Positions 18,157 through 42,551 of a DNA stretch of 64,000 bases are shown piece after piece. Within the stretch, counting starts at the first letter, position 1. Each line of letters starts with the position of its first letter. The notes beneath the pieces are model-generated. The model was given only the letters and a program-made list of their open reading frames with translations. It was not told where the DNA came from and did not search any database. Source of the DNA: Verrucomicrobiia bacterium (GTDB lineage: Bacteria; Verrucomicrobiota; Verrucomicrobiia; Limisphaerales; Fontisphaeraceae); the NCBI GenBank assembly GCA_026414565.1, contig JAOAIT010000017.1:62001-126000 (forward strand), read 5' to 3'. The position numbers and the translations under genes were made by a program.

Positions 18157-18235
18157 ACCGGGCCGCTAAAGTAAAAGATGGCATAACTTGGCAGAACCGA
18201 TGGAAAATAATTAAACAGGAAAGGGACCAACAGCC

Positions 18236-21103: not shown

Positions 21104-22516
21104 ATGCGACAGATCATTCACTGGCGGGAGGGTTTGTTTTTGCAACAGCACCACTTGCAGATTCAACAGCGTATGGTGGTGGAGGGGATGAATGATTTAA
21201 GGCTGAGGGGCCACTTGCATCCCTATGGTGTCATTGAAGCTTCAATTTCTTATGATCATTTACGAGACCGAAAACTGCGAATGGAGCGACTGAAGGCTAT
21301 TTTGCGCAGCGGCCTGGAGGTACATTACCCGGGCAACTTGGAGATGGATCCGGCGGAGCGCGATATCGCCGCTGAGTTTGCAAGGAGTGAGCAAGGTTTA
21401 CTGGTTTACCTCGGTGTGCCCCACTGGCATGCAGACGCACAGAACACCGTGGGCGAAAAGGAGGAAGTGGATTCCCGCAGCAGCATAAGGTACAAGGTTC
21501 GCAGTGACACATTTGCTGATGAAAACGATGGGAAATCCGTTCAGCCCATAGAAATGTTAAAGATTCGCGGGCGCTTGTTTATCGAAGGGGAGAACATGGA
21601 TAATTGGGAGGTGCTTCCCCTTTGCCGCATCGCGCGAGACCCCATCCAAGGTTGGCCAATGGAAGACCTGCATTACGCCCCTCCCTGTGTGCAGATGCGT
21701 GGCTCGATGAACTTGTACCGGCTGGTGGAGGATTTGATGGAGCAAATCTTGGCGACGCGCAAGCACTTATATGAAGTAATTGTGGCTCGGGAGGTGCCGG
21801 CCGCGGAGAAGAGTGAACGTTTGATGCGCTTTCAGACGTTGAACCGGCTTGGTGCCAAGTTTCGTGCTTGGCTCTACGAAGACCGCCGCCTTGGCGGTCA
21901 TTTGCTGGCTTTAATTCATCCTTACGAGTGCTATCTTGAGCTGGCTGAACTGATGGCAGAAATGGCGGTTTTTAATCTTGACCGGGACTGGCTGGAATTC
22001 CTGAAAGTTTCTTACCGCCATGAAGACCCTTACCCGGCTTTTCGGGAGCTCAATGACGCCATCCGAGCCATGCTTCCGTTGAGCCGGGACACGTGCATGG
22101 AGCTGACATTCAGCGACGCCGGAAAAGCCATGGGATTGCGCGTTTTGAGCGTTTCCCTGCATCCAGAACATATCGCTAAGCCGAATGGCTGGTACCTGGC
22201 ATTGGAATCGAACTTGGAGACCACGGCTCTGGCAAATTTTGTTTTGAATCCCGCGCTATTCAAAGTCATGGCCGGAAGTTCCCGAAACAAGCTGGTGGGT
22301 GGAATCCCGTTGGAGACGCAAAGATACACACCGGCATTACCATTTAGAAACGATTTGAGCTACTTTCGACTGGACATCAGTCGGAACCAGGCGGAATGGG
22401 AGCTGGTACGCAAAGAGCGGGAACTTATCCTGCTATACAACCCGACGAAGTTCAACATGGGCGAAACCCGCTTCAAACTAGTGATGACGGTGCCTGTTGG
22501 CAACGAAGGTTTATGA
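21104..22516 (+). CDS. tssK: T6SS baseplate protein TssK
   Basis: 470 residues. The N-terminal shell domain begins with the family signature HWREGLFLQQHHLQIQQ. TssK trimers link the baseplate to the TssL-TssM membrane complex, with the C-terminal head binding TssL. Length and N-terminal motif fit. Its stop shares ATGA with tssL, and it follows the helical-repeat gene by four bases, so it belongs to one long operon. Confidence 0.95.
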   Translation: MRQIIHWREGLFLQQHHLQIQQRMVVEGMNDLRLRGHLHPYGVIEASISYDHLRDRKLRMERLKAILRSGLEVHYPGNLEMDPAERDIAAEFARSEQGLLVYLGVPHWHADAQNTVGEKEEVDSRSSIRYKVRSDTFADENDGKSVQPIEMLKIRGRLFIEGENMDNWEVLPLCRIARDPIQGWPMEDLHYAPPCVQMRGSMNLYRLVEDLMEQILATRKHLYEVIVAREVPAAEKSERLMRFQTLNRLGAKFRAWLYEDRRLGGHLLALIHPYECYLELAELMAEMAVFNLDRDWLEFLKVSYRHEDPYPAFRELNDAIRAMLPLSRDTCMELTFSDAGKAMGLRVLSVSLHPEHIAKPNGWYLALESNLETTALANFVLNPALFKVMAGSSRNKLVGGIPLETQRYTPALPFRNDLSYFRLDISRNQAEWELVRKERELILLYNPTKFNMGETRFKLVMTVPVGNEGL

Positions 22517-23256
22517 TTTTATACCGCCATTGTGAGCCGCTGTTTGCACGGATTGCAGAAGTTTACCGGGCGGTAGCAATCGGCCAGCCGGTTAAGGCTG
22601 ACATCGTCCGGGCCAATCTCGTGGACACCATCCTCGCTTTACGCGGGAAAGCGGATAGAGATTCTGTTTTAGCTCGTCTCTGGAACAAGATTGAAGCCCC
22701 ACTGGTGTGGTTTTCTGACGGGATGATATTAGCCCTGCCGCGAGATTCATCAAACAACTTTATGGGCGAATGGCGCCCCATTGCATTTGAATGGACCTAT
22801 TTGGATCAACCTCCGCAGAACCTCGTGGGTGACGAGGCGTTTATTGAGCGCTTGGACAACTTGCTAAATTCCAATGATCCTGACGCACCGGAATTGATGG
22901 CGGTTTATTATGCCTGTTTGGGGATGGGATATTGTGGGCGATTCCGGGGAATGCCCGACCAAGACCAACAAATCAATCGCCGCCTAACTGGCCTTGAAGG
23001 CCGACTCAAACAAAGCCGGTTTGGCCAATACTGGCTCCACGATGTCGGCAAGAAAATATGCGAGGGACCTCCTTGCGAGGCATATTATTGCGATACTCGA
23101 GCATTGCCTCCGCCGGAGGCAACCCGTTATGCCTTTTATGTGGCCTCTTTTGTTTTCCTCAGTCTGGTTATCTTGGCTTGTTACACCTTGGTATATTACA
23201 AGTCATCCGATGAGATACGGGGTGCCTTGAAATTAATCCTCCAATCGCAGCGGTGA
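22513..23256 (+). CDS. tssL: T6SS inner-membrane protein TssL (DotU/IcmH family)
   Basis: 247 residues from the ATG at 22513 that overlaps the tssK stop; a GAAGG ribosome site precedes it. The cytoplasmic helical domain shows LFARIAEVYRAV, YYACLGMGYCGRF and the charged turn typical of DotU proteins. One C-terminal membrane helix (YAFYVASFVFLSLVILACYTLVYY, about 208-231) anchors it, and nothing follows, so it has no peptidoglycan-binding extension. Anchoring to the wall must therefore be done by another protein. Confidence 0.93.
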   Translation: MILYRHCEPLFARIAEVYRAVAIGQPVKADIVRANLVDTILALRGKADRDSVLARLWNKIEAPLVWFSDGMILALPRDSSNNFMGEWRPIAFEWTYLDQPPQNLVGDEAFIERLDNLLNSNDPDAPELMAVYYACLGMGYCGRFRGMPDQDQQINRRLTGLEGRLKQSRFGQYWLHDVGKKICEGPPCEAYYCDTRALPPPEATRYAFYVASFVFLSLVILACYTLVYYKSSDEIRGALKLILQSQR

Positions 23257-26200
23257 CTTTCAGGATCATGGCAGATAAAACCACAAGCATACCTGAACCG
23301 GCAAGGTGGGCACTTGGTGCCATCGGTGTAACTGTGCCGGTGGGGGCGGCGGCGTGGTGGGGATGGAAGACGGCATTATTGGCGCTTGGTATCGTCTTAT
23401 TACTAGGACTGTTAATTTTTGGAGCATATTGGATTTATTGCCGCGCTCGCCTCCGTCGCAAGGCGAAGATTGATGAGGAATTAATAGGTGTTATTTGGGA
23501 AAAACTCAGGGAGGGGTTAAAAACCATTGGCAAGAAACAGCTCGACTTTCATCGCGGGGGTGAATTGCCATGGTACCTGGTAATTGGAATGCCGGCCTCG
23601 GGCAAGACCATGCTGCTGGCCAACAGCGGCGTTTTGGTAGAGCAGCTTAATCCATGGCGAGAAGAACAGGATGGCTCAAAAGAGCTTGGCTTTAGAGGTG
23701 ATGGCGGTACGAAAGGAATGAATTTCCTTTTTGCCAAATTTGGCAAAAGTAAGTATGCTGTGATATTGGACACAGCCGGAGCGCTGTTGATGGGACACGG
23801 CACGCAAAAGTCCTCCATGGATAGTGAGGGAGGAGCCAAAGGGGGTGCCGATCCTGAGGACTCACTTAAATCGGAAACATGGAGTGATTTTCTCCGGAAA
23901 CTTAAAAAGGCTCACCCTCGTGTGCCGATCAACGGCCTCTTGCTTTTTGTCCCGGTCGATTACCTTGCTTCCTCCTCCTTGGAACAAATTCGAATCAATG
24001 CCGGTCTGATTGGGAAGCGTATCAATGAGTTGCGTGACGAATTGGGAATCCGTTTTCCTCTGTACTTGATTGTATCCAAGTGTGATTTAATGGTGGGATT
24101 CCGGGAGTTTACTCAACGGCTTTATACTGAGTCAAACCACAGTGCCGCACCACCTGAGGATCGGCTGGAGGACCAGATATTCGGTTGGTCGTATCACCCG
24201 GAGAACGAAGATTTGGACAAGCAGGTGGACGAGAATGACGTTGACAAATGGGTGGAAGGAGTAGCGGAAAGGGTTCATACTCGCCTGGTAAGTTGGTTTC
24301 GAAATCCGGCAAACCCTATCAATGGCGTGCGCGGGGCGCATGATTATGATGCGATCTTTGCATTGCCCCAGGCCTTACGAGATCTGGCTCCTAAACTGCG
24401 TGAGTATCTAAATAAATTATTGGAGATGGAGGATATTTCAGAAAAGCCGGTATTCTTTCGTGGATTCTACTTCACCTCAGCATTACGCCAAAATACGGTG
24501 TTTGACGTGGTGCTTGCCCGCAGCCTAAATGTAAGTTTGGACGAATTGCGAATCCGCTATGCCAAGGCCACGGGTGACGTGGACCAAAACGAAGCAGGAA
24601 ACCGTGCCTATTTTATCCAGCATTTGTTCACCCGCAAAATATTTCCGGAACGCTTGCTGGTGACAGATGCTTCAAATATTAAGCGCCTTAAACGTAACCG
24701 CCTGATTGCGGCCATGTCCATTAGCGTTGGAGCGCTACTCCTGCTGCTCGGCATCGCCTGGCATGCCCAAAAACAATTTAAGTATACCTTGGGAACTGAA
24801 CGCGATTATTGGAATGTAGGCGCCAACTGGGCAACAAGCAGTTACTGGCCTCCCATCATAGTACAGTCACCGGGTGGGCAACAATATCGTTATGCTGGGG
24901 CCGATATTATTAAAGAAATTGGAACTTCGTTGGAAGACTACCACGTAAAAATATTCGATATTAGTACGACAAACTTAAAGATTCCTCCAGTATTCAAATT
25001 GGCTCATTGGTTTGTTGATGATTTTTCCGAAGACCGTAGAAATGCACAGCGAATAATATTTGAGCGCAGTCTCGTATTTCCACTAGTGATTGGCGTTCGC
25101 AAAAAGATGGAATCTGATCCCGGGGCCGTTATTGAAATCTCTCCCCATGATTGGACATCCAGCCTCACACGGGCCTTGACCGCTTTGCTCGATTTGGAAA
25201 AATATGGCCAATATTCTGCACACGTCACGAACGGATCTGAATATATTAATGCCTTTAATTATTACTTGGCGATAACCAACCCGGTCAGTAGCAATATAGT
25301 ACGGGTTTGGAATGGGGTTTATGGAGGCAGGCCGCCACGCACGGGCGCGGAGTGGCACTGGCCTCCAAAAGGATTAGCAAAAGGAGCAACTAATCTGGCG
25401 GATTACCCATCCATTAATAATGGGTTGCGGTTATTGCTGAACAATGTGACTAATAATTTAAGTGCAGCAACGACCAATCTTCATCGGTTAAAGACTCTTC
25501 AAAATATGCTTATTGCATATGCCACTAATGAAACTGGATATCTGAGTTCGGTAGGAACGGGGGATTATTCTACAATAAATTTAGCATGGCTATCCTTGAG
25601 CAATTGCTTCTCAAATCTGGATAATAATGAGGCGGCTAAATATTCCGACCAAGCCCTGAATATGGCGTATGAAAGTATAAGTAGTAATGCATTCTTAAAG
25701 ACCAGTGAAGACTTGAATAAGTTGTTGAAGCCAATAAAAGCCGCTGGAGATAGTATGCCCATCGGAAATGAGATCACTCAAAAAGTGGCGCAAGCTCTCC
25801 AGGATATTAAAAGGCGAGCCGAAATAATGGATAAGGAATTTTTGGAGCGCACAACAAATTACGCCTTGGATAGCAATATTCTGACGAACCGGTCATATTA
25901 TCGCAGGTTTGAATTATACAAAGTTGTAATGGGTGCCAGTCAATCTCCGGTTCCGTCAGGTCTTGAATATCGCGATTTGGTAGGCAAGGAATGGCAACCT
26001 TTACTGCAAAAGGCCTCGAATCACGTAAACATCTTGGCGACATATTCTAGCCAATATTCAGGACCTTTAAGCAACAACGTAAACGAACTGGTGGTGTATA
26101 TATCCCGCTATTATAATACCAATTTGTTCAACATGGTGGTGGATGAATACTGCCGGGCAGCTAGACAGTTATTAACCAATAGAAATATTATGACATTAAA

Positions 26201-26954
26201 CAATATAACAAATATAGCAACGGAGTTAATAAATATAGATAAAGACATCTCAGCAGGAAAGAGGATGGATGTAATCAGTAATTGGCACAAAATATTTGAC
26301 GAAATCACAAATTCCATCGCACAGAAGCGAAGGGAATTAGGAAGTAATATTGTAACTCATATAAATAATAAATATACCGCCATATATAATAGTAATTTGC
26401 TGGCGAACCCAACAGCATGGAATGGACTTGAAGAAATACAACCGTGGCTTACAAATCAAATGATTTGTATGTTATTGAAGGCATCTTTACACAGTGGCCT
26501 TAGAGATCACATGGTTACGAATATAAATAGAATGATTAGGTTCCGGGATGCTATAATAGATATAGATGAAGGAAAAGTTAGAACGGTAAAGGAATGTACC
26601 TATATTCCTATTATCAAAGATGGTTGGTTGGACTACTATAAATATAATTGGATTAGGATAGGTAATAATGATAAAAATGAGTATCGCACCGATTTAACCA
26701 ATAAAATAGATGATATAATAATAACAAATGGTTTTACTGTCAGTGTAATAGAGAAAGACAATGGGGCCACAAATACCCTGACTCATAATATATTCAAAAT
26801 GCTTGCTGAGTACTGCGAGCCTGGAAGTGGGGGTGCCGTATGGGAGGTTCAATATAGTATGCCTAAGATAAAACAAAAAATTAAGTTAAATATCGAACTG
26901 TATAAACCTTTACCTAAAACCAATGAATGGCCGCCGGTCGTGTTGGAATGGTGA
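23253..26954 (+). CDS. tssM: T6SS inner-membrane protein TssM (IcmF family)
   Basis: 1,233 residues from GTG at 23253 (GTGA overlap with tssL) or ATG at 23268. Two membrane helices (about 23-36 and 41-61) precede a cytoplasmic NTPase-like domain with an intact Walker A (GMPASGKT, 112-119), LDTAGALL as the switch region and SKCD as the G4 motif. A third helix (AMSISVGALLLLLGIAW, about 486-502) leads to a periplasmic domain of some 730 residues that should contact the TssJ lipoprotein and TssL. The last third is encoded by very AT-rich DNA with Asn-rich, low-complexity-like sequence, and looks far diverged from usual TssM. Confidence 0.93.
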   Translation: MTFRIMADKTTSIPEPARWALGAIGVTVPVGAAAWWGWKTALLALGIVLLLGLLIFGAYWIYCRARLRRKAKIDEELIGVIWEKLREGLKTIGKKQLDFHRGGELPWYLVIGMPASGKTMLLANSGVLVEQLNPWREEQDGSKELGFRGDGGTKGMNFLFAKFGKSKYAVILDTAGALLMGHGTQKSSMDSEGGAKGGADPEDSLKSETWSDFLRKLKKAHPRVPINGLLLFVPVDYLASSSLEQIRINAGLIGKRINELRDELGIRFPLYLIVSKCDLMVGFREFTQRLYTESNHSAAPPEDRLEDQIFGWSYHPENEDLDKQVDENDVDKWVEGVAERVHTRLVSWFRNPANPINGVRGAHDYDAIFALPQALRDLAPKLREYLNKLLEMEDISEKPVFFRGFYFTSALRQNTVFDVVLARSLNVSLDELRIRYAKATGDVDQNEAGNRAYFIQHLFTRKIFPERLLVTDASNIKRLKRNRLIAAMSISVGALLLLLGIAWHAQKQFKYTLGTERDYWNVGANWATSSYWPPIIVQSPGGQQYRYAGADIIKEIGTSLEDYHVKIFDISTTNLKIPPVFKLAHWFVDDFSEDRRNAQRIIFERSLVFPLVIGVRKKMESDPGAVIEISPHDWTSSLTRALTALLDLEKYGQYSAHVTNGSEYINAFNYYLAITNPVSSNIVRVWNGVYGGRPPRTGAEWHWPPKGLAKGATNLADYPSINNGLRLLLNNVTNNLSAATTNLHRLKTLQNMLIAYATNETGYLSSVGTGDYSTINLAWLSLSNCFSNLDNNEAAKYSDQALNMAYESISSNAFLKTSEDLNKLLKPIKAAGDSMPIGNEITQKVAQALQDIKRRAEIMDKEFLERTTNYALDSNILTNRSYYRRFELYKVVMGASQSPVPSGLEYRDLVGKEWQPLLQKASNHVNILATYSSQYSGPLSNNVNELVVYISRYYNTNLFNMVVDEYCRAARQLLTNRNIMTLNNITNIATELINIDKDISAGKRMDVISNWHKIFDEITNSIAQKRRELGSNIVTHINNKYTAIYNSNLLANPTAWNGLEEIQPWLTNQMICMLLKASLHSGLRDHMVTNINRMIRFRDAIIDIDEGKVRTVKECTYIPIIKDGWLDYYKYNWIRIGNNDKNEYRTDLTNKIDDIIITNGFTVSVIEKDNGATNTLTHNIFKMLAEYCEPGSGGAVWEVQYSMPKIKQKIKLNIELYKPLPKTNEWPPVVLEW

Positions 26955-29900
26955 CATATATGGCACATCCAATCCCAACATCGAACATTATTCGTGAGCA
27001 TTTAACCCGGATTGCAGCGGGAAAAAAGAGAGAATTGTTGCTGGGGCTATTTGGAAAGCATCCAGCATGGGAAGACCATATACCATCATATTTAAGGCCC
27101 CCGGAACTCGAGACCGTTGACAGGCTATTGGATTCAGGGGTTGTTGGAAATATAGATAACCGGTGGGGCCTTAATTTGGAATATTTTATTGCTGCTCGGA
27201 AATCATTGGTAGTGGGTGGAATATTTCCGTGCATTGATGGCTCCATTGAGCGTCGTGCACAAAAACCATTGATTATTGCTGCCTATTCCTCTGGATTGCC
27301 AAGGGACTATGTATTTGAACAAGTATTACCGCGACTGAGAGGATTCCATCGAACGGTGATTCCACGAGTTAAGCAGGAAGAGGTTGAATCGCATCCGTTA
27401 TATGGTTGGGTGTTAAAAACCAACCCGCAAGTTCGGTGCTTTCCCTTAAACCGAAAGGAATATGGCACTGTTGCTATAACTCAGGAGGAGGTTTGTAAAG
27501 CACATGCTGAACTGCAGGCAGAGTTTAATAACATGATACGCTCGTTGCCGGAAGAGGTGTTTTACACCGGTGTCGAGCAAAAAACATTGGAACAGTTTTT
27601 TAATAGGTCAGATTGGGATCCTAATCGCGCAAAGCTTGAGCATGTATTAGCTGATTTATGGGAAAACGCACGATTAGCAGGCGTGACACCGGGGCGGGGT
27701 GTGCGCGTGCCGCTGGGCATACAAACATTAGATACGGATATTAAGATATGGGCTGCGCTACTTGACAAAATAATAGGCGAAGAATATGGTTATACTATAA
27801 TAGTCGCACCAGAAGACAGCTGGATCGGCCTCTTTTCAGGCTCCGAAATCAGTGTCCCTCAGGTACGAACAATAAAGGCGCCCATAGCTACTTGGCCATA
27901 TTTTGTACAAGCCGGTAAAAATCAAACCCCCGATTGTCGAGCTGCTGTTATTCAGGCGATTACCGCAACTGCTCCATTTTTGGCGGCAGAGTATAATTCA
28001 GGAGATGTAAGATGTACCTACGTTAAAGAGGAGGTCATCATTGATAGCGCGTCGGACAAAAAAGTTAATAAGGCTGGCATTGATGGTGGGGTTATTCCTG
28101 CTAACGCCATTAAAGATGTAATGGAGAATAATGGCGAGGTGGACCAGCCCCAACCCAAAAGCAATATTATTTATCAGCCGACAAGCGAGCCCCTTGCTGC
28201 CGTTGGGAAAGGCGTCCCTCAACTCCATAAAATCGGGGTGGCAGGCAATCAAGGAGTAATTGATAATACTCACACTCATATAGAATCCTCGTCGGCGATT
28301 CACTCAAGACTTCAACAGGTAAATGCTCCCAGTCGGAGAATTCTATCAATTAAAGACCTGTTCTGTATTTTAGATAAGAATACACGCCCAAACATTATTA
28401 TAAAGATTCTTTCCATTATTCTTTTCGGATTAGCAGTATTGTTTGTATGTTTGCCTGGTTACAAACGACCAGAATTGCAGGCGAAAATAAAAAGGACTTC
28501 TGGAGAAACTGATAGCAATAGTACCCAGTTTGCGGCTAAGGTGCAAATGCCGGGTATTAATAAGGGGAAGGTAGATGGTAGGCCAAATCTTCCACCAGCG
28601 ATTCGTGTGAATACAACCAATATTATGCTTCAAGCTGGTGGAAGCACCAACATTCTCGTTTTACTTGAGGATGAGGACACACCAGTTGATTCAGTAGTAT
28701 TATCGGAAGTATCGGTTGACATGGGTGGCCTGCACATTCGAACTAATCAAATATTGCAGAACCAGTGGAGAATTACGTTGACAGCTGATAAGACCATCGG
28801 TAACCAAAGGGCAATCATGAGGCTTGGAGCATCAGATGGACAAACCAATACGTTAGACAAGTATTATATAACAGTAGTAAAGCCGCCAGTTGACCTGGTG
28901 GCAGGAAGTCAACAAGTAATTGCCTATCCAGGCTATCGTCATTCCTTAATTCTTCAAGGCATGGGAGACCCCGACGTGCCATTAAAATACCGGATATTAA
29001 GTTTGCCAAAGCATGGCAAAGTAGCACCGGTTGAGGGAATTATGAACAATGGTGCGGCCAAACTAGAATATCTCACATCTCCGGGGCCAAGCATGGACGA
29101 GTTAACGTTTGTAGTGTATCAAGGCGATAAGACCTCAGCGATTGGGAACGTAGCAATTCAAATTACGAACATCATGCCACTGAAAATCAGCTGGCCTGGT
29201 TCAGCAAAAATAGCGCTCCTGGTCGGCCAGTCAAGAAATTTCGATATTCAAATAACAAAGGCTCCAATTGTGAAAAATGTGGAATGGCAAGTTGAGTCCA
29301 AGCCCAAGGGGATGGTACGCGCCGCAGTCGAAACGAAAGAACAGGCGGCTCTTCTTGATTTGGAAGCCTTGCCTGGCAGCGGTGGTCATACTGTGGAGTT
29401 GACTATTAAAGTTCTTGGGGATGGCGGCGCATGCGGTGATGTCTGCAAGATTTTGCTGGTGGTTCAAAATACCAATTCTTTGCCTATGACATCATCATTG
29501 GTTAAGGAAAAGGTTTTCCGGATTAACACTGAAAACGGCATTCAGGTCGAATTCGAGATGGTGTGGGTTGCTGGCCTGCCCGGTGGGGGTGATTGGGATG
29601 AGAGTCACCGGGGAGGGGGCTGGGTTGGCAAATATGAAGTCAACCAGACCCAGTACGAGGCGTACACTAGCAGTCGGAATATGACAAATCCCAGCAGCGC
29701 GGGCAGAGAGTTCTTTAAAGAAATTAATAAGTCATGGAGCGGAAAGTTGCCTGTTGAAAATGTGACATTTAACGAAGCGGTCTCTTTTTGTGATTTTCTA
29801 AATCAAGCGACGGATAATGGGCGGGAGCGCAAGGGATGGGTTTTTAGACTGCCAACGGTTGAACAGTGGAAGCATATGTTTAACACAGCCTACCCACAAT

Positions 29901-30214
29901 ACCAGCAGGGCAAATTTATTGCTTCCACCAACCATGTGCTTTCGGTGTTTATACAGGCCGAAACAATGCATAAACACCCACTTGAAACAGGAGAGTTGCG
30001 TGATCATAATCCTCTTGGGATACAAGATCTGATTGGGAATGTCTGGGAATGGTGTGTGGCCAACGAAACAAACGCCGTCTGTTATGGTGGTGGTTTCGAT
30101 ACTGTGAATGCCAACGTTATTCCTTTCAGCACGCGCTCTACGAGTCGAACACATCGGTTAAAAAACGTGGGCTTTCGTGTCCTGATTGTTCCTGCTCAAA
30201 GAAACAGTTCATAA
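26948..30214 (+). CDS. TagF-like - membrane helix - Ig-like - FGE-like fusion protein
   Basis: About 1,088 residues; starts at 26927, 26948 and 26960 are all possible. Residues about 35-250 (from ATG 26927) resemble the cytoplasmic TagF regulator: LLLGLFGKHPAWEDHI, FPCIDGSIERRAQKPLIIAA, LPRDYVFEQVLPRL. A linker of about 200 residues follows, then one membrane helix (about 489-510). Next come periplasmic Ig/cadherin-like repeats (about 535-870) and a C-terminal formylglycine-generating-enzyme fold (about 877-1088: WVAGLPGGGDW, FRLPTVEQWKH, NVWEWC, GFRVL). The Cys-Arg step of active FGEs reads Ser-Thr-Arg here, so catalysis is unlikely. This joins a cytoplasmic repressor of T6SS firing to a periplasmic sensor in one chain. 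It sits between tssM and tssA. Confidence 0.8.
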   Translation: MVTYMAHPIPTSNIIREHLTRIAAGKKRELLLGLFGKHPAWEDHIPSYLRPPELETVDRLLDSGVVGNIDNRWGLNLEYFIAARKSLVVGGIFPCIDGSIERRAQKPLIIAAYSSGLPRDYVFEQVLPRLRGFHRTVIPRVKQEEVESHPLYGWVLKTNPQVRCFPLNRKEYGTVAITQEEVCKAHAELQAEFNNMIRSLPEEVFYTGVEQKTLEQFFNRSDWDPNRAKLEHVLADLWENARLAGVTPGRGVRVPLGIQTLDTDIKIWAALLDKIIGEEYGYTIIVAPEDSWIGLFSGSEISVPQVRTIKAPIATWPYFVQAGKNQTPDCRAAVIQAITATAPFLAAEYNSGDVRCTYVKEEVIIDSASDKKVNKAGIDGGVIPANAIKDVMENNGEVDQPQPKSNIIYQPTSEPLAAVGKGVPQLHKIGVAGNQGVIDNTHTHIESSSAIHSRLQQVNAPSRRILSIKDLFCILDKNTRPNIIIKILSIILFGLAVLFVCLPGYKRPELQAKIKRTSGETDSNSTQFAAKVQMPGINKGKVDGRPNLPPAIRVNTTNIMLQAGGSTNILVLLEDEDTPVDSVVLSEVSVDMGGLHIRTNQILQNQWRITLTADKTIGNQRAIMRLGASDGQTNTLDKYYITVVKPPVDLVAGSQQVIAYPGYRHSLILQGMGDPDVPLKYRILSLPKHGKVAPVEGIMNNGAAKLEYLTSPGPSMDELTFVVYQGDKTSAIGNVAIQITNIMPLKISWPGSAKIALLVGQSRNFDIQITKAPIVKNVEWQVESKPKGMVRAAVETKEQAALLDLEALPGSGGHTVELTIKVLGDGGACGDVCKILLVVQNTNSLPMTSSLVKEKVFRINTENGIQVEFEMVWVAGLPGGGDWDESHRGGGWVGKYEVNQTQYEAYTSSRNMTNPSSAGREFFKEINKSWSGKLPVENVTFNEAVSFCDFLNQATDNGRERKGWVFRLPTVEQWKHMFNTAYPQYQQGKFIASTNHVLSVFIQAETMHKHPLETGELRDHNPLGIQDLIGNVWEWCVANETNAVCYGGGFDTVNANVIPFSTRSTSRTHRLKNVGFRVLIVPAQRNSS

Positions 30215-30234: not shown

Positions 30235-31515
30235 ATGCAGGAAAACGAGAAACTTGGATTAATTGAGCCAATCAGCCTAGAATCTCCGTGTGGGGTGGAC
30301 CTCCGGTATGACCCAGAGGCTGAATTTGACGTATTGGAATCCATGCTAACACCCGCAGCAGGTGCCGACCCTAATTGGGAAGAAATTCGGGAACGGGCAC
30401 TTGCCACGCTGGCGCGAGGCAAAGACCTTCGGGTTATGATCATCCTTGCAACGGCATCCTTGAAAACCGAAGGCCTTGGGGGATTCAATGACTGTCTGGA
30501 GGTAATGGGGGAATGGCTTGAGCGATACTGGGAGAATCTACATCCGATTCTTGACGAGGCTGAGAAGGCCGGCAAGATTGAGCCACGGCGTTGCGGCATT
30601 TTGGAGAATTTAGCCTTAATACCGGGAGAGCCTTATCAGATCGTTTACCGCTTGCGTGAATTACCTCTGATAGGGAAAATAAGCATGGATATGGTGTCTC
30701 TGGCCTTGGGGGATCGAGCTTACGAGGTGGCCGTGCCGGAAGAACAGCGCATGCGGCTTGATGAAATTAAAGCTGTGATACAAACTACACCTTTGTCAAT
30801 TGTGGAACAAATCTTGAATCAATGTAACCGGGGACTGCATCTTTTAGGGAGAATAAGACAACAGTTGGAGAAGCACCGTGTTCAGGAGCGCTTTTTGCCG
30901 CGATTCACCCCTTTGGAATCAGTATTGCAGGAGGTCGTAGCCTTTTTCAGCCCTTTTATAACGGCTACTACGAGTGACATAGATCAGATTGTTAAGTTAA
31001 CAAAGAACATGGAGAAGGTATTGCCAGAGATTGAGCAATACCATACTCGCCTAGGCCAGGTTTTGGAAGCCGTGGAGGCGCTCATCCCTGCGCCGCCGGG
31101 TTCCGGTCTTGAGCAATCAAATCTCCTTTTAAGAAGCCAAAATGTTTATAAGCGTCTGAAGGATACAGCTCATACCGCAGGCAAACTACCACCGGAATTA
31201 GTAAAGACAGCGCTTGGGAGGTTGGAGGAATTCCAACGTGTAAGTCGTTCAATGGAAACAGTGTCCATATCAATCACGAAGGTTCAGAGTCGTCATGATG
31301 CGGAACACCTTTTAGAAGCTGTGGGTGATTATTACCGACAGCAGGAACCTTCCAGCCCGTTGCCAATGCTGTTGTCACGTGCCAGGCGGTGGTCGAGAAT
31401 GTCATTTCGGGATATTCTCCTAGACTTGGAACTGGGGGAGGCGGCCATGGGGAGGGTTGATAGCGTGCTCCGGCCAGAAAAATCACGGGCTGAGAATCCT
31501 GAGAATCAGCCCTAA
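30235..31515 (+). CDS. tssA: T6SS cap/assembly protein TssA
   Basis: 426 residues from ATG at 30235, 20 bases after the fusion gene; upstream in-frame starts would overlap that gene. The N-terminal ImpA domain is clear: ISLESPCGVDLRYDPEAEF, ATASLKTEGLGGFNDCL, WENLHP. The C-terminus has YYRQQEPSSPLPMLLSRARRW, the conserved end of short TssA proteins. TssA rings initiate and cap sheath growth. Confidence 0.93.
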   Translation: MQENEKLGLIEPISLESPCGVDLRYDPEAEFDVLESMLTPAAGADPNWEEIRERALATLARGKDLRVMIILATASLKTEGLGGFNDCLEVMGEWLERYWENLHPILDEAEKAGKIEPRRCGILENLALIPGEPYQIVYRLRELPLIGKISMDMVSLALGDRAYEVAVPEEQRMRLDEIKAVIQTTPLSIVEQILNQCNRGLHLLGRIRQQLEKHRVQERFLPRFTPLESVLQEVVAFFSPFITATTSDIDQIVKLTKNMEKVLPEIEQYHTRLGQVLEAVEALIPAPPGSGLEQSNLLLRSQNVYKRLKDTAHTAGKLPPELVKTALGRLEEFQRVSRSMETVSISITKVQSRHDAEHLLEAVGDYYRQQEPSSPLPMLLSRARRWSRMSFRDILLDLELGEAAMGRVDSVLRPEKSRAENPENQP

Positions 31516-31844: not shown

Positions 31845-32342
31845 ATGCCACTTACCATAGCTGAATTCATCAAACGAAATCGCCCACCACGGGTTCACAT
31901 TCAGTATAAGCCCGATATTAACGGGCCGGTGTTGGTGGATTTGCCGTTCGTTCTAGGTGTGATGGCAAACCTGACGGGCGAGGCATCGGAAACTCACCTA
32001 GTAGAGGACGAGAAACGCAAGTTTATCGAAATTGATAAAGATAATTTTGAGACGGTTCTCAAAAAAACAGCGCCCAAGGTCTGCCTCAAAGTGGATAATA
32101 AACTGGGTGGAAGTGACTCAAGGCTCGCTGTGGAGCTCACATTCAAAAAGATGGACGACTTTTCGCCTGCCGCTATAGCTCAAGCTGTACCAGAGCTTAA
32201 GGCCATCTATGATAAGCGGCAAGCACTTAACGAAATTAAAAATTCTCCCCACAGAATCAAAAAGGTCGTGGCAGGACTGACTAAAAAGGATAATGCTACA
32301 CAAATCGGCCCCATGCTCAATAGGCCGGTTTCGGGAAAATAA
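31845..32342 (+). CDS. tssB: T6SS sheath small subunit TssB (VipA/ImpB)
   Basis: 165 residues, normal length. Motifs: RVHIQYKP at the start, LPFVLGVMANLTG, RKFIEIDKDNFETVL, and LTFKKMDDFSPAAIAQAVPEL. It pairs with TssC to form the contractile sheath. A 49-base gap separates it from tssC. Confidence 0.96.
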   Translation: MPLTIAEFIKRNRPPRVHIQYKPDINGPVLVDLPFVLGVMANLTGEASETHLVEDEKRKFIEIDKDNFETVLKKTAPKVCLKVDNKLGGSDSRLAVELTFKKMDDFSPAAIAQAVPELKAIYDKRQALNEIKNSPHRIKKVVAGLTKKDNATQIGPMLNRPVSGK

Positions 32343-32391
32343 ACGAGCTTATTATGGCAGCAACGTTAAACTCATAAAGTATTAATGTCTT

Positions 32392-33849
32392 ATGTGTGCC
32401 GCTGAGAATTTTAATTTGGAGCGAGCAGTGGAAACAGTCACCGCGTTAGGCCCCGAGGCCTTCCTTGGGGTTGAGGAGCTAGTTCAACGGGTGACAGAGG
32501 GATCTCCCAACGTCATCGAGGGTGACTTGGATCGCACTTTGGAAAACATGATCGCCGAATTAGATACCAAATTAACCGATCAAATAAATGAGATTTTGCA
32601 CAATCCCAAATTGCAAGAATTGGAAGCTACATGGAGGGGTTTGTATTTTTTAGTCATGAATGCTGAGACTGATGCCTCTTTACGCATACAAGTACTAAAT
32701 GCCACAAAGGAGGAGCTGGCCGAAGTATTCGACAGGTATCCAGGTGCCAAGTGGGATCAGAGCCCTCTTTTTAAAATGATTTACGGTCCCTTGGACACTC
32801 ACGGTGGGAAACCATTCGGGTGCCTGATTGGAGACTACTACTTTTCACATTCGCCGACCGACGTTTCTGTGTTGAAGGGAATGATGCAGATAAGCGCGGC
32901 CGCCATGGCGCCATTCATCAGCGGAGTATCGCCAGAGCTTTTCGGCTTGGAAAGCTGGCAGCAGATAGATGAAATATCGGACATGGCCAAGCTCCTTGAA
33001 GGGAAGAAATACGCCGGATGGCGTTCGCTGAGAGAAAACGAGGATGCTCGTTTTCTGGGGCTGACCGGACCGCGGTTTCTAGCACGGCTTCCCTATGGCA
33101 AGAGCACCAGACCGGTCTCGGAATTTGATTTCGAGGAGGAAGTGGATGGCAAAGACCACAGCAAGTACCTTTGGGCGAATTCGGCTTATGCATTTGGATA
33201 TTGCATTGCCCGAGCCTACAAAATCAGTGGGTGGCCTGCAAGAATATGGGGACCCAATACGGAAGATGGCATGGGAGGTAAACTTGAGGGTTTACCTACC
33301 CATACCTTCCCTACCGATGATGGGGATGTTGATCTAAAGTGTCCGACGGAGGTGGCGATTGGTGCGCGCAGAGCCAAAGAGTTCGATACGTGTGGCTTAA
33401 TTCCTTTATGCCACTGGAAAGATGCAGACCATGCCTCCTTCATGGGAGCACATTCTTTGCAAAAGGTTCAGAAATACCAGAATCAAGATGACCAGGAAAA
33501 TGCGGAGCTATCAGCGAGGTTAAGTTATCTGATGACAGCCAGTCGGTTCGGACATTATCTGAAGCAAATAATAACTGAAGAGATTGGCACCTTTAAATCG
33601 CGAGAGGATATGCAGAATCTGCTCACCAACTGGATTCGCCAGTATGTATGTGCTGATCCAGGGTCCGCTTCCGCGATTGCAAAAGCCAGACAACCATTGG
33701 CGGCGGCGGAGGTTGAGGTACAAGAAGTCAAAGGTGCTCCAGGATATTATACAGCCAAGTTTTCTCTGCGACCACATTATCAGCTTGAAAGTGTAAATAC
33801 CGACATAAGTTTGGTTGCCAGGGTCCCATCGGCTCGCCAGAGTACATGA
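32392..33849 (+). CDS. tssC: T6SS sheath large subunit TssC (VipB/ImpC)
   Basis: 485 residues. Signatures include LQELEATWRGLYFLV, GCLIGDYYFSHSPTDVSVL, WRSLRENEDARFLGLTGPRFLARLPYG and the C-terminal YYTAKFSLRPHYQLE. Together with TssB it builds the sheath that ClpV disassembles. The start ATG at 32392 lacks an obvious Shine-Dalgarno sequence, as is common in this locus. Confidence 0.96.
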   Translation: MCAAENFNLERAVETVTALGPEAFLGVEELVQRVTEGSPNVIEGDLDRTLENMIAELDTKLTDQINEILHNPKLQELEATWRGLYFLVMNAETDASLRIQVLNATKEELAEVFDRYPGAKWDQSPLFKMIYGPLDTHGGKPFGCLIGDYYFSHSPTDVSVLKGMMQISAAAMAPFISGVSPELFGLESWQQIDEISDMAKLLEGKKYAGWRSLRENEDARFLGLTGPRFLARLPYGKSTRPVSEFDFEEEVDGKDHSKYLWANSAYAFGYCIARAYKISGWPARIWGPNTEDGMGGKLEGLPTHTFPTDDGDVDLKCPTEVAIGARRAKEFDTCGLIPLCHWKDADHASFMGAHSLQKVQKYQNQDDQENAELSARLSYLMTASRFGHYLKQIITEEIGTFKSREDMQNLLTNWIRQYVCADPGSASAIAKARQPLAAAEVEVQEVKGAPGYYTAKFSLRPHYQLESVNTDISLVARVPSARQST

Positions 33850-33932
33850 GGAGTTGATTGCTAAACAAACACATTTGTAATAAAACAGAAGGGTGCAAGC
33901 AGGACCATTGCACTCAAACCAGATCCTAAAAA

Positions 33933-33958
33933 TTGAGAACCGGGTCCGGGTTTCTCAA
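33933..33958. promoter_or_regulatory. Hairpin in the hcp leader
   Basis: TTGAGAA (33933-33939) pairs with TTCTCAA (33952-33958), and a CCGG/CCGG pairing is possible inside. It lies 16 bases before the hcp start. Hcp is usually the most abundant T6SS product, so a 5' stabilising or processing hairpin is plausible; this role is inferred. Confidence 0.45.
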
Positions 33959-33974
33959 AAAACCGAGATTAGTT

Positions 33975-34469
33975 ATGGCGACAAATTATTTCCTTCAAGT
34001 TAAAGGAATCACGGGCGAGTGCACCGACAAAAAGCACAAGGATTGGATGGAAGTCATAGAATACCAGCATGGAGTTGTTCAGGAATCCGGGGCGACTCAA
34101 GCCGCCACCGGAGCCCACTCCACTGGTAGGGGTCAACACGAAAACCTTAAGATCATCAAATACCTCGACAAAAGCAGTCCCAATCTGGCCCTGTATTGCT
34201 CCAAAGGGCAGCACATCGATGAAGTAAAATTGGAATTGAACAAAATGATAAACGGCAAGCAATGTCCCTACATGGAATACAAGCTGTCGAAAGTATTGAT
34301 TACTTCGGTCAAACCGCGCGGAGTGACGGTCAACAATGACAGTTTGCCCACTGAAGAGGTGACATTCCGTTACAATAAAATTGAGTGGACGTATACGGCC
34401 TATGACGACAAAGGGAACACTGCGGGCAAGACTACAGCATCTTGGGATTTAACCGCGAACGAGGGCTGA
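33975..34469 (+). CDS. hcp: T6SS tube protein Hcp (TssD)
   Basis: 164 residues from ATG at 33975; the frame extends to 33933 but that would place coding sequence across the leader hairpin. The family start NYFLQVKGITGECTDKKHKDWMEVIEYQHGV is clear, with later FRYNKIEWTYTAYDDKG. Hexameric rings stack inside the TssBC sheath and carry small effectors. No extended C-terminal effector domain is present. It is flanked on both sides by gaps of over 110 bases containing hairpins, unlike the rest of the operon. Confidence 0.95.
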   Translation: MATNYFLQVKGITGECTDKKHKDWMEVIEYQHGVVQESGATQAATGAHSTGRGQHENLKIIKYLDKSSPNLALYCSKGQHIDEVKLELNKMINGKQCPYMEYKLSKVLITSVKPRGVTVNNDSLPTEEVTFRYNKIEWTYTAYDDKGNTAGKTTASWDLTANEG

Positions 34470-34495
34470 TGAAAATGTAAAAATATGCCAATAAG

Positions 34496-34541
34496 GACGC
34501 CACCGCTGTCATAATCAATTTAAAAGGGCACCGGTGGAGTC
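34496..34541. promoter_or_regulatory. Long-loop hairpin between hcp and tagJ
   Basis: 34496-34505 pairs with 34532-34541 (nine pairs, one G-A mismatch) around a 26-base loop, 26 bases past the hcp stop. There is no T-run. It could protect the hcp 3' end and uncouple hcp levels from the genes that follow. Confidence 0.4.
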
Positions 34542-34587
34542 GCATTGGCCCATAATCAGATCCAGGAGGATAAGGTATGGAGATATT

Positions 34588-35379
34588 ATGACTTACCAGG
34601 AGCATCTCTCAGAAAATGATCTGATCGGTGCAGTAACCTGCCTGCAGGCGCAGATCAAGAGTAACCCAGGTGACACATTACTTCGCCAGGTTTTATTCCA
34701 GTGTCTGTGCTTGCAGGCTAAGTGGGATCAAGCAGTTGCCCAGCTGGATGTTCTGCAATCGTTGAGCCACGAATGGCAAAATAGGAGTGTGATATTTCAA
34801 GGTATAATTGAAAGTGAAAAAGCACGTGAGCGGGTTTTTCAAGGAATGCACAGCATTCCCTTATATGGCGCAGCTGAATATTGTAGCCGGTCATGGATTG
34901 CAGGATGCGAGAGATTAACCCAAGGTAAATATGATGAGGTTAGCACCTTTTATGAACAAGGATTATCCTCTTGGCCGCAATTTAAATATAAAATCAACGA
35001 CCAACATAGTTCATGGTTCAGCGATGCTGATACTCGAGTTGGGCCTTTCATTGAGGCCTTCCTCCAGACACGTTACTATTGGATTCCGAATTATAGGCTC
35101 AAAATGGTCATATTTTCACCTGTTGAACGTCTCCACGACCTTGTTTGGCGGCGCGCCGAGTTTTGGTTAGCTGATGGACTGCACACACATGGTTTTGTCC
35201 CAGTTCGTTATCCGGGGGCATCTTTAGCATGGTCTGGTAAACTTTTAATGTCGGGCCATACAGAATGGGAAACGGTGGGGGAGAAGTGGCTGATTGGCAT
35301 GGGCCAGCGCTTATGGATGACGGATTGGGGTGACCAGGCTTTTTTAGAGGTACATAAAGTCGAACAGGTTAACACCTAA
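34588..35379 (+). CDS. tagJ: T6SS accessory protein TagJ/ImpE family
   Basis: 263 residues from ATG at 34588, with GGAG five bases upstream and an AGGAGG a little further back. The N-terminal half is TPR-like (NDLIGAVTCLQAQIKSNPGD, LRQVLFQCLCLQAKWDQAVAQLDVL). The C-terminal half has the ImpE pattern WFSDADTRVGPFIEAF, YYWIPNYRLKMVIF, LHDLVWRRAEF. TagJ binds the TssB side of the sheath in systems that have it and helps ClpV-mediated recycling. Confidence 0.88.
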   Translation: MTYQEHLSENDLIGAVTCLQAQIKSNPGDTLLRQVLFQCLCLQAKWDQAVAQLDVLQSLSHEWQNRSVIFQGIIESEKARERVFQGMHSIPLYGAAEYCSRSWIAGCERLTQGKYDEVSTFYEQGLSSWPQFKYKINDQHSSWFSDADTRVGPFIEAFLQTRYYWIPNYRLKMVIFSPVERLHDLVWRRAEFWLADGLHTHGFVPVRYPGASLAWSGKLLMSGHTEWETVGEKWLIGMGQRLWMTDWGDQAFLEVHKVEQVNT

Positions 35380-35386
35380 AAACAAA

Positions 35387-35869
35387 ATGAGGCCAACTTC
35401 CACTTTGCCTTGCCTATTTGAGCGCATATGTTCCGGGGAAAGTGCCAGTGCCAAAGGTGGCATCCACTCACGGTTGGTTTCAATTAGCCAGTATCGTAAA
35501 TCAGTACTGGAGGATTTAAGGAACCTGTTGGGAAACTGTGCGATATTGAAAGATGAGGAGGCCGCATCCTACCCTGAAAGTGCGTGCTCGGTCTTGAATT
35601 ATGGCATTCGTTTCGCATGGGGATCCAACATGGGGCTTCAAGAAATGCCTGCATTGGAATATCATATTAAAGACCTGCTGCTGATATATGAACCACGTTT
35701 TGACCGAGCTTCCTTGAAAGTGACAGCGAGACCTCAAGCAGAACGTCCAGATTCTGTAGCTTTGGAGATTGAAGCGCAATTGTGGTGCCATCCTGTGCCT
35801 GAATATTTAAAATATGAAACCCGATTAGATCTAAATGTAGGAGTGTTTGTTTTTAATAACTTAGGATGA
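35387..35869 (+). CDS. tssE: T6SS baseplate wedge protein TssE (gp25-like)
   Basis: 160 residues. The gp25/lysozyme-like fold is recognised from FERICSGE, YRKSVLEDLRNLLGNC, SVLNYGIRF and the ending in which a charged strand (EPRFDRASLKVTA) precedes IEAQLW. It starts seven bases after tagJ and shares ATGA with tssF. Confidence 0.9.
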   Translation: MRPTSTLPCLFERICSGESASAKGGIHSRLVSISQYRKSVLEDLRNLLGNCAILKDEEAASYPESACSVLNYGIRFAWGSNMGLQEMPALEYHIKDLLLIYEPRFDRASLKVTARPQAERPDSVALEIEAQLWCHPVPEYLKYETRLDLNVGVFVFNNLG

Positions 35870-37767
35870 AAAACCGTCGGCAACAACTTTTGCGTTGCTA
35901 CGAGGAAGAATTGAATTTCCTGCGGCATCGAGCGGCAGAATTTGCCTCGCAAAACCCAAAAGCCGCTGCTAGACTGTTTCTTTCCGCTGATCCCAGCATT
36001 TCCTGCCCTGACCCTCATGTTGAGCGGCTTCTTGAGGGGGTGGCCTATTTAACGGCTCGTGTGCGTTTGAAATTCGAATCCGAATTTCCTCGTTTCACTC
36101 AGGCCTTGCTGGAATCTATTTATCCTTATTACTTGTGCCCTTTGCCATCTATGACAATCGTAGAGTTTGTGCCCAAGTATGCCGAGGTTCCCCCGCAAGG
36201 ATATAAGATACCGCGGCACACGGAATTACGAGAGCTGCTCCGCGGAGACGAGGAACGAGTCACCCCTTGTCTTTTTCGTACTGGCCATGCAGTTGATGTC
36301 AGGCCTATCCAACCTCCAGAGTGCCACTATTATTCTCAAAGGCTTGCCGATTTGCGTCTCCCTGATGGCCTAAATATTCATGCAGCCATTCGTATCCGGC
36401 TTCGCACTCAAGGAAGCGTGGCCTTCAACGAACTGGAATTAGACCGTTTGAGCTTCTATATTCATGCTGACCCATCACTGGCGGGTGTACTCTACGAGGA
36501 GATAATGGCTCACCTTTCACACGTGGTGGTGCAGGTGGCGGGAGACCGGAGAGAGACCCTTGGGCTTTTGCCATCGAGATGTGTGAGACCAGTGGGTTTT
36601 GACCGGGAGCAGGCCTTGTTACTGCAAGATTCGAGGTGTTTCGATGGTTACCGTCTGCTTCAAGAGTACTTTGCATTTCCCCAGCGATACATGTTTTTTG
36701 AACTGGAAGGACTTAATCCGATGTTGGAAAAGGTCCATGGGGACGCTATGGAAATCGTTTTAGGATTTGACCGTGATAACCGAGTCTTGGATCGGCGGCT
36801 CATTCCTAACGGCTTAAGACTTTTTTGCACGCCCGCGGTAAATCTGTTTCCCCTCTGGTGCGACCAGATTGAATTGACCGATCGCTTCCATGAGTTTGCG
36901 ATATTGCCCGATCGGACAAGGCCTTTGGATTATGAAGTCCATTCGGTTGAATGTGTTGTGGGGTTGGATGACACGGGAACGGAAGCGCGACGTTTTTCGC
37001 CATTTTATCAAAATCGGGATACGGGGCCAGGCGGCGCATATTTTACAGTTCATCGCCGGCAGCGGCTGCTTACTGACCAGGAGCAACGCACCGGCCAGCA
37101 CCCTGCTTATCTGGGGTGCGATGCCTTTCTCTCATTGGTGGATGAGAATGCAGTGCCGCTGGCATCTCGATATCATGGAAATGCTGTGCGTTCACTCAGG
37201 CGCTTGCGAGTCCGGGCCTGGTGCACAAACCGGCATCTTCCCGCATACATGGCTGAGCCCAGGCGATTTGATTTGTTTGGAGGTCCTTTGGAATCCATAC
37301 ACTGCCTTGAAAGACCAACCCTGCCCTATCCATCCTTTGCGGAAGGCGAATTTGCCTGGCGCCTAATTGGGCATTTGGGGGTAAATTACCAAAGCCTGCT
37401 CTCAAGTAATGATTCAGGGGTTGGTGCACTGAAAAAACTATTAAAGCTCTATGCCTACACCGAAGATGGAGAATCGCCGGTCGAAATTGAACACCTGAGA
37501 AAAATCGAGGTCGATTATGTAACCCATCGCGTTCCAACCAAGGGCCCGGTGCCCTTCGCATTTGCGCGTGGTTTACTGATTAAAATGGATGTTGACGATC
37601 ACAAAGGCGGCGGGTTTGGAATGTTTTTGCTTGGTGCGGTATTAGAGCGCTTTTTCGCGAAATATGCATCTGTAAATTCCTTTACCCAACTCGTATTAAC
37701 CAGCGACGAGGGAAACACATTGAGGAAAACATGGCCGCCACGTTCAGGAGCCCGAGAGATCGTTTGA
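35866..37767 (+). CDS. tssF: T6SS baseplate protein TssF
   Basis: 633 residues. The N-terminus is classic for TssF/VasA: LLRCYEEELNFLRHRAAEFA, DPHVERLLEGVAYLTARV, RFTQALLESIYPYYLCPLPSM. Two TssF chains and one TssG form the baseplate wedge around VgrG. The ATG overlaps the tssE stop and the 3' end overlaps tssG by 37 bases. Confidence 0.95.
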   Translation: MKNRRQQLLRCYEEELNFLRHRAAEFASQNPKAAARLFLSADPSISCPDPHVERLLEGVAYLTARVRLKFESEFPRFTQALLESIYPYYLCPLPSMTIVEFVPKYAEVPPQGYKIPRHTELRELLRGDEERVTPCLFRTGHAVDVRPIQPPECHYYSQRLADLRLPDGLNIHAAIRIRLRTQGSVAFNELELDRLSFYIHADPSLAGVLYEEIMAHLSHVVVQVAGDRRETLGLLPSRCVRPVGFDREQALLLQDSRCFDGYRLLQEYFAFPQRYMFFELEGLNPMLEKVHGDAMEIVLGFDRDNRVLDRRLIPNGLRLFCTPAVNLFPLWCDQIELTDRFHEFAILPDRTRPLDYEVHSVECVVGLDDTGTEARRFSPFYQNRDTGPGGAYFTVHRRQRLLTDQEQRTGQHPAYLGCDAFLSLVDENAVPLASRYHGNAVRSLRRLRVRAWCTNRHLPAYMAEPRRFDLFGGPLESIHCLERPTLPYPSFAEGEFAWRLIGHLGVNYQSLLSSNDSGVGALKKLLKLYAYTEDGESPVEIEHLRKIEVDYVTHRVPTKGPVPFAFARGLLIKMDVDDHKGGGFGMFLLGAVLERFFAKYASVNSFTQLVLTSDEGNTLRKTWPPRSGAREIV

Positions 37768-38807: not shown

Positions 38808-38816
38808 TAATAAATT

Positions 38817-41582: not shown

Positions 41583-41631
41583 ACACTATGGATTCATTTT
41601 ATAATAGTCCTCAATAGAGCCAAAGGCAGGC

Positions 41632-42453: not shown

Positions 42454-42551
42454 CTCAATCTATGGGCTGTCCTAAGTTGAAAAAAATGAATGCGCATCGG
42501 GCAGAGCAAGCACCACACCATTCAAGTGTAAAATAAGCCAATTGAGATCTT

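What the first reader, a model, noticed from the sequence alone, without database searches (positions are those of the whole stretch)
26948..30214. One-chain fusion of TagF-like regulator, membrane helix, Ig-like repeats and FGE-like sensor
TagF normally is a free cytoplasmic repressor of T6SS assembly, and FGE-fold domains occur on PpkA/periplasmic sensors. Here they are joined across the inner membrane, which would transmit an outside signal directly to the repressor without a kinase. The FGE part lacks the catalytic Cys-Arg step, so it is more likely a ligand binder. I know of no described T6SS regulator with this architecture.
Basis: partly seen in the sequence, partly recalled or inferred. 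Interest (0 to 1): 0.85.

Follow-up and report, generated by a model that had tools for sequence, protein, structure and literature searches.

The report
Membrane-anchored TagF sensor of type VI secretion
In this bacterium, and in relatives from two phyla, the protein that normally floats in the cell and holds back a toxin-injecting harpoon (TagF) is built into a membrane receptor with an outside sensing domain, and it comes with a matching receptor that carries a kinase that looks dead, so the harpoon may be switched by direct receptor contact instead of phosphorylation.

Summary
Window 26948-30214 is one intact 1088-residue ORF whose start overlaps the tssM stop, inside a near-complete T6SS cluster. 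Residues 25-341 fold as TagF: the only significant PDB match is TagF of Acinetobacter baylyi (E 1.4e-7, Z 14.5), followed by P. aeruginosa TagF. One transmembrane helix follows (483-501), then a low-confidence beta-sandwich region, then an FGE-fold domain (PvdO Z 16.3) without the catalytic cysteine pair.

It is not a one-off. Among 55 related loci in Verrucomicrobiota and Planctomycetota, 18 more carry TagF-TM-FGE (two with a weak helix) and five carry TagF-TM with other ectodomains. tssM almost always lies upstream. In two loci TagF is unfused and followed by a secreted FGE protein.

All 18 genomes searched encode one kinase-fold protein, normally joined to its own TM, ectodomain and FGE; 17 of 18 lack the catalytic Asp. 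In the window it is split (49004-49735, 49707-52529). No FHA gene lies on the T6SS contig in any of 11 genomes where this can be read.

Best reading: paired FGE receptors, one ending in TagF, one in a pseudokinase, gate T6SS assembly at TssM/TssL without phosphorylation. Anatomy shown; mechanism inferred.

The parts
26948..30214 (+). Whole gene: TagF domain - TM - beta ectodomain - FGE domain, 1088 aa
27020..27970 (+). TagF-fold domain, residues 25-341; GK at residues 36-37, D97, R103
27971..28393 (+). Cytoplasmic linker of about 140 residues (roughly 20-70 in relatives)
28394..28450 (+). Single transmembrane helix, residues 483-501
   Evidence: same place in relatives
28643..29416 (+). All-beta region, probably Ig/cadherin-like sandwiches, residues 566-823 (low confidence)
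   Evidence: partly homologous to the ectodomain at 49707-52529
29495..30202 (+). FGE/PvdO-fold domain without catalytic cysteines, residues 850-1085
23253..26954 (+). tssM (IcmF), directly upstream, overlaps the TagF start
22513..23256 (+). tssL (DotU)
21104..22516 (+). tssK
30235..31515 (+). tssA (ImpA_N), directly downstream
31845..44552 (+). tssB, tssC, hcp, impE/tagJ, tssE, tssF, tssG, tssH (ClpV-like AAA), vgrG
49004..49735 (+). Partner, cytoplasmic half: protein-kinase fold with HGN in place of HRD (predicted pseudokinase)
49707..52529 (+). Partner, outer half: TM - beta ectodomain - degenerate FGE domain, 940 aa, separate frame

Best explanation
The gene encodes a membrane-anchored TagF. 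The TagF domain sits in the cytoplasm beside the TssL/TssM base, where TagF proteins are known to block T6SS assembly. The helix joins it to a periplasmic stalk ending in a ligand- or partner-binding FGE fold that is not an enzyme. In the same cluster a second receptor carries a related ectodomain, but inside it ends in a kinase fold that lacks the catalytic Asp. I propose that the two receptors pair through their ectodomains and that an envelope signal changes the pairing, which exposes or hides the TagF domain at the TssM/TssL complex, with no phosphorylation step. Shown: anatomy, TagF and FGE folds, loss of FGE and kinase catalytic residues, recurrence in two phyla, one kinase-fold partner per genome searched, close tie to T6SS, no FHA gene in the clusters that can be judged. 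Inferred: orientation, repression, pairing, signal, direction of switching.
For: TagF fold. 24 of 56 relatives reach TagF_N sub-threshold, best 1.2e-4, while no other family matches more than one member. tssM ends next to TagF in nearly all loci with upstream DNA, as in Serratia, where TagF is thought to act on the membrane complex and possibly TssM (PMC6082577; PMC10482370). GK and SxDxxxR, needed for TagF repression (PMC5995506), are conserved in the family. Co-occurrence with T6SS in 293 genomes: 16 shared of 17 TagF-like and 19 T6SS-positive, Fisher p 2e-22. Unfused pair in L100/L104: TagF followed by a secreted FGE protein. Partner in 18 of 18 genomes, FGE at its C-terminus in all 16 that could be read and are not split; kinase fold E 5.6e-12 with HRD replaced. 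Ectodomains of the two receptors are homologous (E 1e-9 in the window; down to 1e-61 in relatives). No FHA on the T6SS contig of 11 of 13 genomes (the other two have fragmented clusters). N-in orientation by positive charges, 14 against 3.
Against: No experiment exists. The window copy is very divergent (end branch 4.8), has Cys for the conserved Ser and a 2-residue insertion before the conserved Arg, and the DxW motif of TagF is not seen in the family. In the two best-studied systems TagF acts through Fha, which could here be an unlinked FHA protein (every genome has 5-8). Own partners are not each other's closest ectodomains (first in 4 of 16), so tight co-evolution is not shown. TagF without FGE, or with no TM at all, is common in relatives. 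The window's own charge pattern around the helix is ambiguous.
Confidence: 0.5

Rival explanations
1. Structural collar. The paired FGE proteins are fixed parts of the T6SS membrane complex, forming a periplasmic scaffold around TssM in place of the lipoprotein TssJ, as FGE-fold PorK/GldK forms the T9SS ring; the TagF domain only docks them.
For: TssJ (PF12790) is not found in 13 of 13 genomes tested, with E. coli as positive control. PorK matches the FGE domain at Z 13.9; weak GldK model hits. The TagF-like gene is nearly as constant as the sheath protein in the order surveyed. Ectodomains are PEGA, TPR or beta repeats.
Against: Several T6SS-positive relatives have TagF with no TM or ectodomain, so the collar would be dispensable. 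PvdO and FGE match at equal or better Z, so PorK similarity is only the common fold. TagF domains studied so far repress; they are not structural parts.
Confidence: 0.25
2. Ordinary threonine-phosphorylation pathway with shuffled domains. The partner kinase is active by an unusual route, an unlinked FHA protein is its substrate, and anchored TagF is only the usual antagonist held at the membrane.
For: Partners keep the position of the glycine-rich loop and mostly the beta-3 Lys and an Asp at the DFG position; one of 18 has HGD; the profile also matches PpkA (2.3e-5). FHA proteins occur elsewhere in each genome.
Against: Catalytic Asp is N, E, A or R in 17 of 18 and DFG is replaced. No FHA in the clusters that can be judged. 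No phosphatase found among the window's cluster genes scanned.
Confidence: 0.15
3. The TagF part is a relic. The window copy has drifted and the protein now serves only as an FGE-bearing adhesin or sensor unrelated to T6SS control.
For: End branch 4.8 in the tree; Ser to Cys and an insertion in the key loop.
Against: Open frame, invariant residues kept, operon position kept, fold predicted well; relatives are not degraded.
Confidence: 0.07

Closest known systems
TagF (PA0076 of P. aeruginosa H1-T6SS; SMDB11_2256 of Serratia marcescens)
   Same: Fold, gene position after tssM (Serratia), GK and SxDxxxR motif in the family
   Different: Known ones are soluble and alone; here anchored in the membrane with an ectodomain. 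DxW motif not recognised; no Fha gene beside it
TagF-PppA fusion of Agrobacterium tumefaciens (PMC5995506)
   Same: TagF as N-terminal domain of a fusion protein
   Different: There fused to a cytoplasmic phosphatase; here to a TM and periplasmic FGE domain
TagQRST-PpkA-PppA-Fha threonine phosphorylation pathway
   Same: Periplasmic input to the T6SS, a kinase-fold membrane receptor, TagF. TagR itself is, from my own knowledge and not tested here, an FGE-fold protein
   Different: FGE is fused to both receptors, the kinase lacks its catalytic Asp, no Fha in the cluster, no TagQ/S/T recognised
RtkS-PpkA input of S. marcescens (PMC6082577)
   Same: Periplasmic domain feeding a membrane kinase that antagonises TagF
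   Different: RtkS is reported as unrelated to known signalling folds; here TagF itself has the periplasmic domain
FGE/PvdO/PorK fold proteins
   Same: Fold of the C-terminal 235 residues
   Different: No catalytic cysteine pair; anchored to a T6SS regulator domain

Membership tests
TagF | TagF fold | tested here: met
   9t0n E 1.4e-7, Z 14.5; 6iz8 and 2qnu Z 9.2; next fold 5.9
TagF | Match to a TagF sequence model above the curated cut-off (PF09867, TIGR03373) | tested here: inconclusive
   Window copy has no hit; 24 of 56 relatives hit TagF_N below cut-off, best 1.2e-4; TIGR03373 E 0.003 for the G011 copy
TagF | Encoded beside tssM in a T6SS cluster | tested here: met
TagF | Residues needed for Fha binding: GK and SxDxxxR | tested here: met
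   Kept across the family; window keeps GK, D and R, has C for S and a 2-residue insertion
TagF | DxW motif | tested here: inconclusive
   Not recognised in the alignment; not checked by structure superposition
TagF | Soluble cytoplasmic protein | tested here: not met
   One TM and a large ectodomain; so filed as a TagF-domain receptor, not as a TagF
TagF | Represses T6SS assembly | not testable with these tools
   needs genetics
Formylglycine-generating enzyme | FGE fold | tested here: met
   Pfam 1.2e-13; PvdO Z 16.3
Formylglycine-generating enzyme | Catalytic cysteine pair C-x4-C | tested here: not met
   Absent in the window and in all other FGE domains checked
PpkA (partner gene) | Protein kinase fold, TM, ectodomain | tested here: met
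   Profile of 18 domains: StkP 5.6e-12, PpkA 2.3e-5; TM and FGE in relatives; in the window on two ORFs
PpkA (partner gene) | Catalytic HRD aspartate | tested here: not met
   HGN in the window; N, E, A or R in 17 of 18, D in one
Threonine phosphorylation pathway | FHA-domain protein encoded with the T6SS | tested here: not met
   None on the window's contig nor on the T6SS contig of the other 10 genomes where the cluster can be judged; FHA proteins exist elsewhere

The most novel reading that the evidence does not exclude
Verrucomicrobiota and Planctomycetota control their T6SS with a phosphorylation-free transmembrane switch: two receptors with homologous FGE-tipped ectodomains, one delivering the TagF repressor and one a pseudokinase, form a sensor that directly opens or closes the TssM/TssL base.
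Probability: 0.4. Interest if true: 0.85.

Novelty: new variant of a known kind. Interest (0 to 1): 0.72.

Why it matters
How an envelope signal reaches the T6SS is an open question: the signals behind TagQRST and RtkS are poorly understood, and so is the control of TagF. Here evolution has put the outside sensor and the repressor on one chain, which makes the question directly testable: the ligand of one ectodomain, the binding site of one TagF domain, and whether a pseudokinase can replace PpkA. It also gives a first picture of T6SS regulation in two phyla where I found no literature on it.

Tried and rejected
Artefact or chance fusion: rejected, the order recurs in 18 other loci of two phyla. 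Pfam and NCBIfam alone miss the window's TagF domain, and PF09867 finds nothing in the own genome (with no control ringing, so uninformative); the fold was needed. Profile searches of PDB sequences with the TagF-like alignments found nothing real. phmmer of the FGE part against the PDB: nothing. Search of genome contigs with the full protein failed; the alignment worked, but its pattern L[AGC][ALG]FGKHP[AG] biases the loci to that motif. Weak hits in G435 and G338 turned out to be unrelated proteins; those in G514, G488, G575 and G581 were not inspected. Foldseek on the whole ectodomain ranked beta-sandwich repeats first; FGE appeared only in the second look. Own-partner co-evolution of ectodomains: the permutation result is confounded by phylogeny, own partner first in only 4 of 16, so not claimed. 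Single origin of the fusion: not decided (9 changes on the tree, at least 2 forced). Some records named as cyanobacteria (L068, L077) group with planctomycetes and are probably misnamed bins.

Full report
Observation. The ORF at 26948-30214 is real: ATG at 26948 overlaps the tssM stop (ATGgTGA), 1088 codons follow without a stop, and tssA begins 20 bases later. It lies between tssK-tssL-tssM and tssA-B-C-hcp-impE-E-F-G-H with vgrG, so the cluster is nearly complete; TssJ was not found.

The N-terminal domain is TagF. Sequence models do not see it in the window copy. I therefore collected relatives: a protein search in the same order and class and a profile search in the phylum gave ten sequences with the core L-x-x-FGKHP-x-W-x-DH and, further on, SSDGKGRxxYP. 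A model built on these matches exactly one PDB fold with significance, TagF of A. baylyi, and the second-look aligner ranks the three TagF structures first, well clear of longin/DENN folds. A scan of public genomes with the profile gave 49 more loci. Of 56 aligned domains, 24 reach Pfam TagF_N below its cut-off and no other family matches more than one. The residues that Lin et al. (PMC5995506) found necessary for TagF to bind Fha and repress, GK and S..D...R, stand in the same order and spacing; the window copy keeps G, K, D and R but has Cys for Ser and two extra residues.

Membrane pass and ectodomain. Residues 483-501 form the only strong hydrophobic segment. In 22 fusions with a clear helix the N-terminal flank carries more positive charge in 14 and less in 3, which favours TagF inside; the window alone is ambiguous. 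Outside lies an all-beta stretch, modelled with low confidence, then a well-modelled FGE fold. The cysteine pair of FGE is absent in the window and in every other FGE domain checked.

How common. Eighteen further loci have TagF, a membrane segment and FGE on one chain, in Verrucomicrobiota (for example G008, G011, Pedosphaera) and Planctomycetota (Phycisphaerales); in two of them (L069, L074) the helix is weak and looks like an internal signal sequence. Five have TagF-TM with other ectodomains, and the rest are short or unassigned. In L100 and L104 TagF is alone and the very next gene encodes a secreted FGE protein: the same two parts, unfused. In the window's order, 17 of 293 genomes carry the domain and 19 carry the T6SS sheath gene; 16 are shared (Fisher p 2e-22). 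Fourteen of those 17 have a membrane segment just after TagF, five of them with FGE.

The partner. Beside the fusion of G011 lies a gene for a kinase-like domain, TM, PEGA repeats and FGE. Its window relative is 49004-49735, followed by a TM-FGE ORF at 49707-52529. Searched in 18 genomes (17 with the fusion, one with the unfused pair), this kinase-like family was found once in each, joined to FGE in all 16 cases that can be read and are not split (L141 is cut by its contig end). A profile of the 18 domains matches protein kinases in the PDB (StkP 5.6e-12, PpkA 2.3e-5), with HRD replaced by HG followed by N, E, A, R or, once, D. The two ectodomains are homologous within genomes. An FHA domain, the usual third party, is absent from the T6SS contig in 11 of 13 genomes; for the other two (G008, G011) the cluster is fragmented and nothing can be said beyond the contigs at hand.

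Mechanism. TagF blocks T6SS assembly, through Fha in P. aeruginosa and A. tumefaciens (PMC5995506) and at the membrane complex, possibly TssM, in S. marcescens (PMC6082577, PMC10482370). With no Fha beside it and tssM next to it, the second target is the more likely here. Putting the repressor and a periplasmic binder on one chain, with a homologous receptor carrying a kinase fold without its catalytic Asp, suggests a direct conformational switch. This is an inference from anatomy. The main rival is a structural collar: TssJ is missing in all 13 genomes tested, and FGE-fold PorK builds a periplasmic ring in another secretion system (fold match; the ring role is established knowledge).

Known or new. 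All parts belong to known folds, and TagF has been seen fused before, to PppA. An anchored TagF receptor and its pseudokinase twin are not in the papers I could search; subscription journals and preprints are mostly not held, so this is not proof. I rate it a new variant of a known kind.

Noticed in passing
window 49690-49760: The partner receptor is one ORF in the relatives read but split in the window: pseudokinase ORF ends at 49735, TM-FGE ORF starts at ATG 49707 in another frame, 29-base overlap. A true split, a frameshift or a sequence error.
   Followed up: partly
window 15511-19954: A two-partner secretion pair (TPS-domain exoprotein and ShlB-type transporter) directly precedes the T6SS cluster; ShlB-type genes also lie directly after TagF in all ten relatives scanned. 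A recurrent T6SS/TPS neighbourhood without a known reason.
   Followed up: partly
L165, L166 (G261, G290): TagF-TM followed by long ectodomains without an FGE hit (ORFs of about 1450-1630 aa), a further type of anchored TagF.
   Followed up: no
13 genomes with this TagF family: TssJ (PF12790) not detected in any, although E. coli rings as control.
   Followed up: partly
window 26948-27970: After TagF structures, the nearest folds are eukaryotic longin/DENN domains (folliculin, C9orf72, VAMP7), suggesting that TagF has a longin-like core.
   Followed up: no
window 52512-54548 (-) and 54545-55300 (-): Two unnamed ORFs without Pfam hits at the end of the T6SS region, converging on the partner receptor.
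   Followed up: no
window 47541-48275: DUF6931 protein (E 4e-21) between vgrG and the partner receptor.
   Followed up: no
window 19951-21099: Unnamed ORF just before tssK, with similarly placed ORFs in G011 (L050:4232-5461) and G008 (L049:8117-9106, reverse strand); a possible lineage-specific T6SS component.
   Followed up: no
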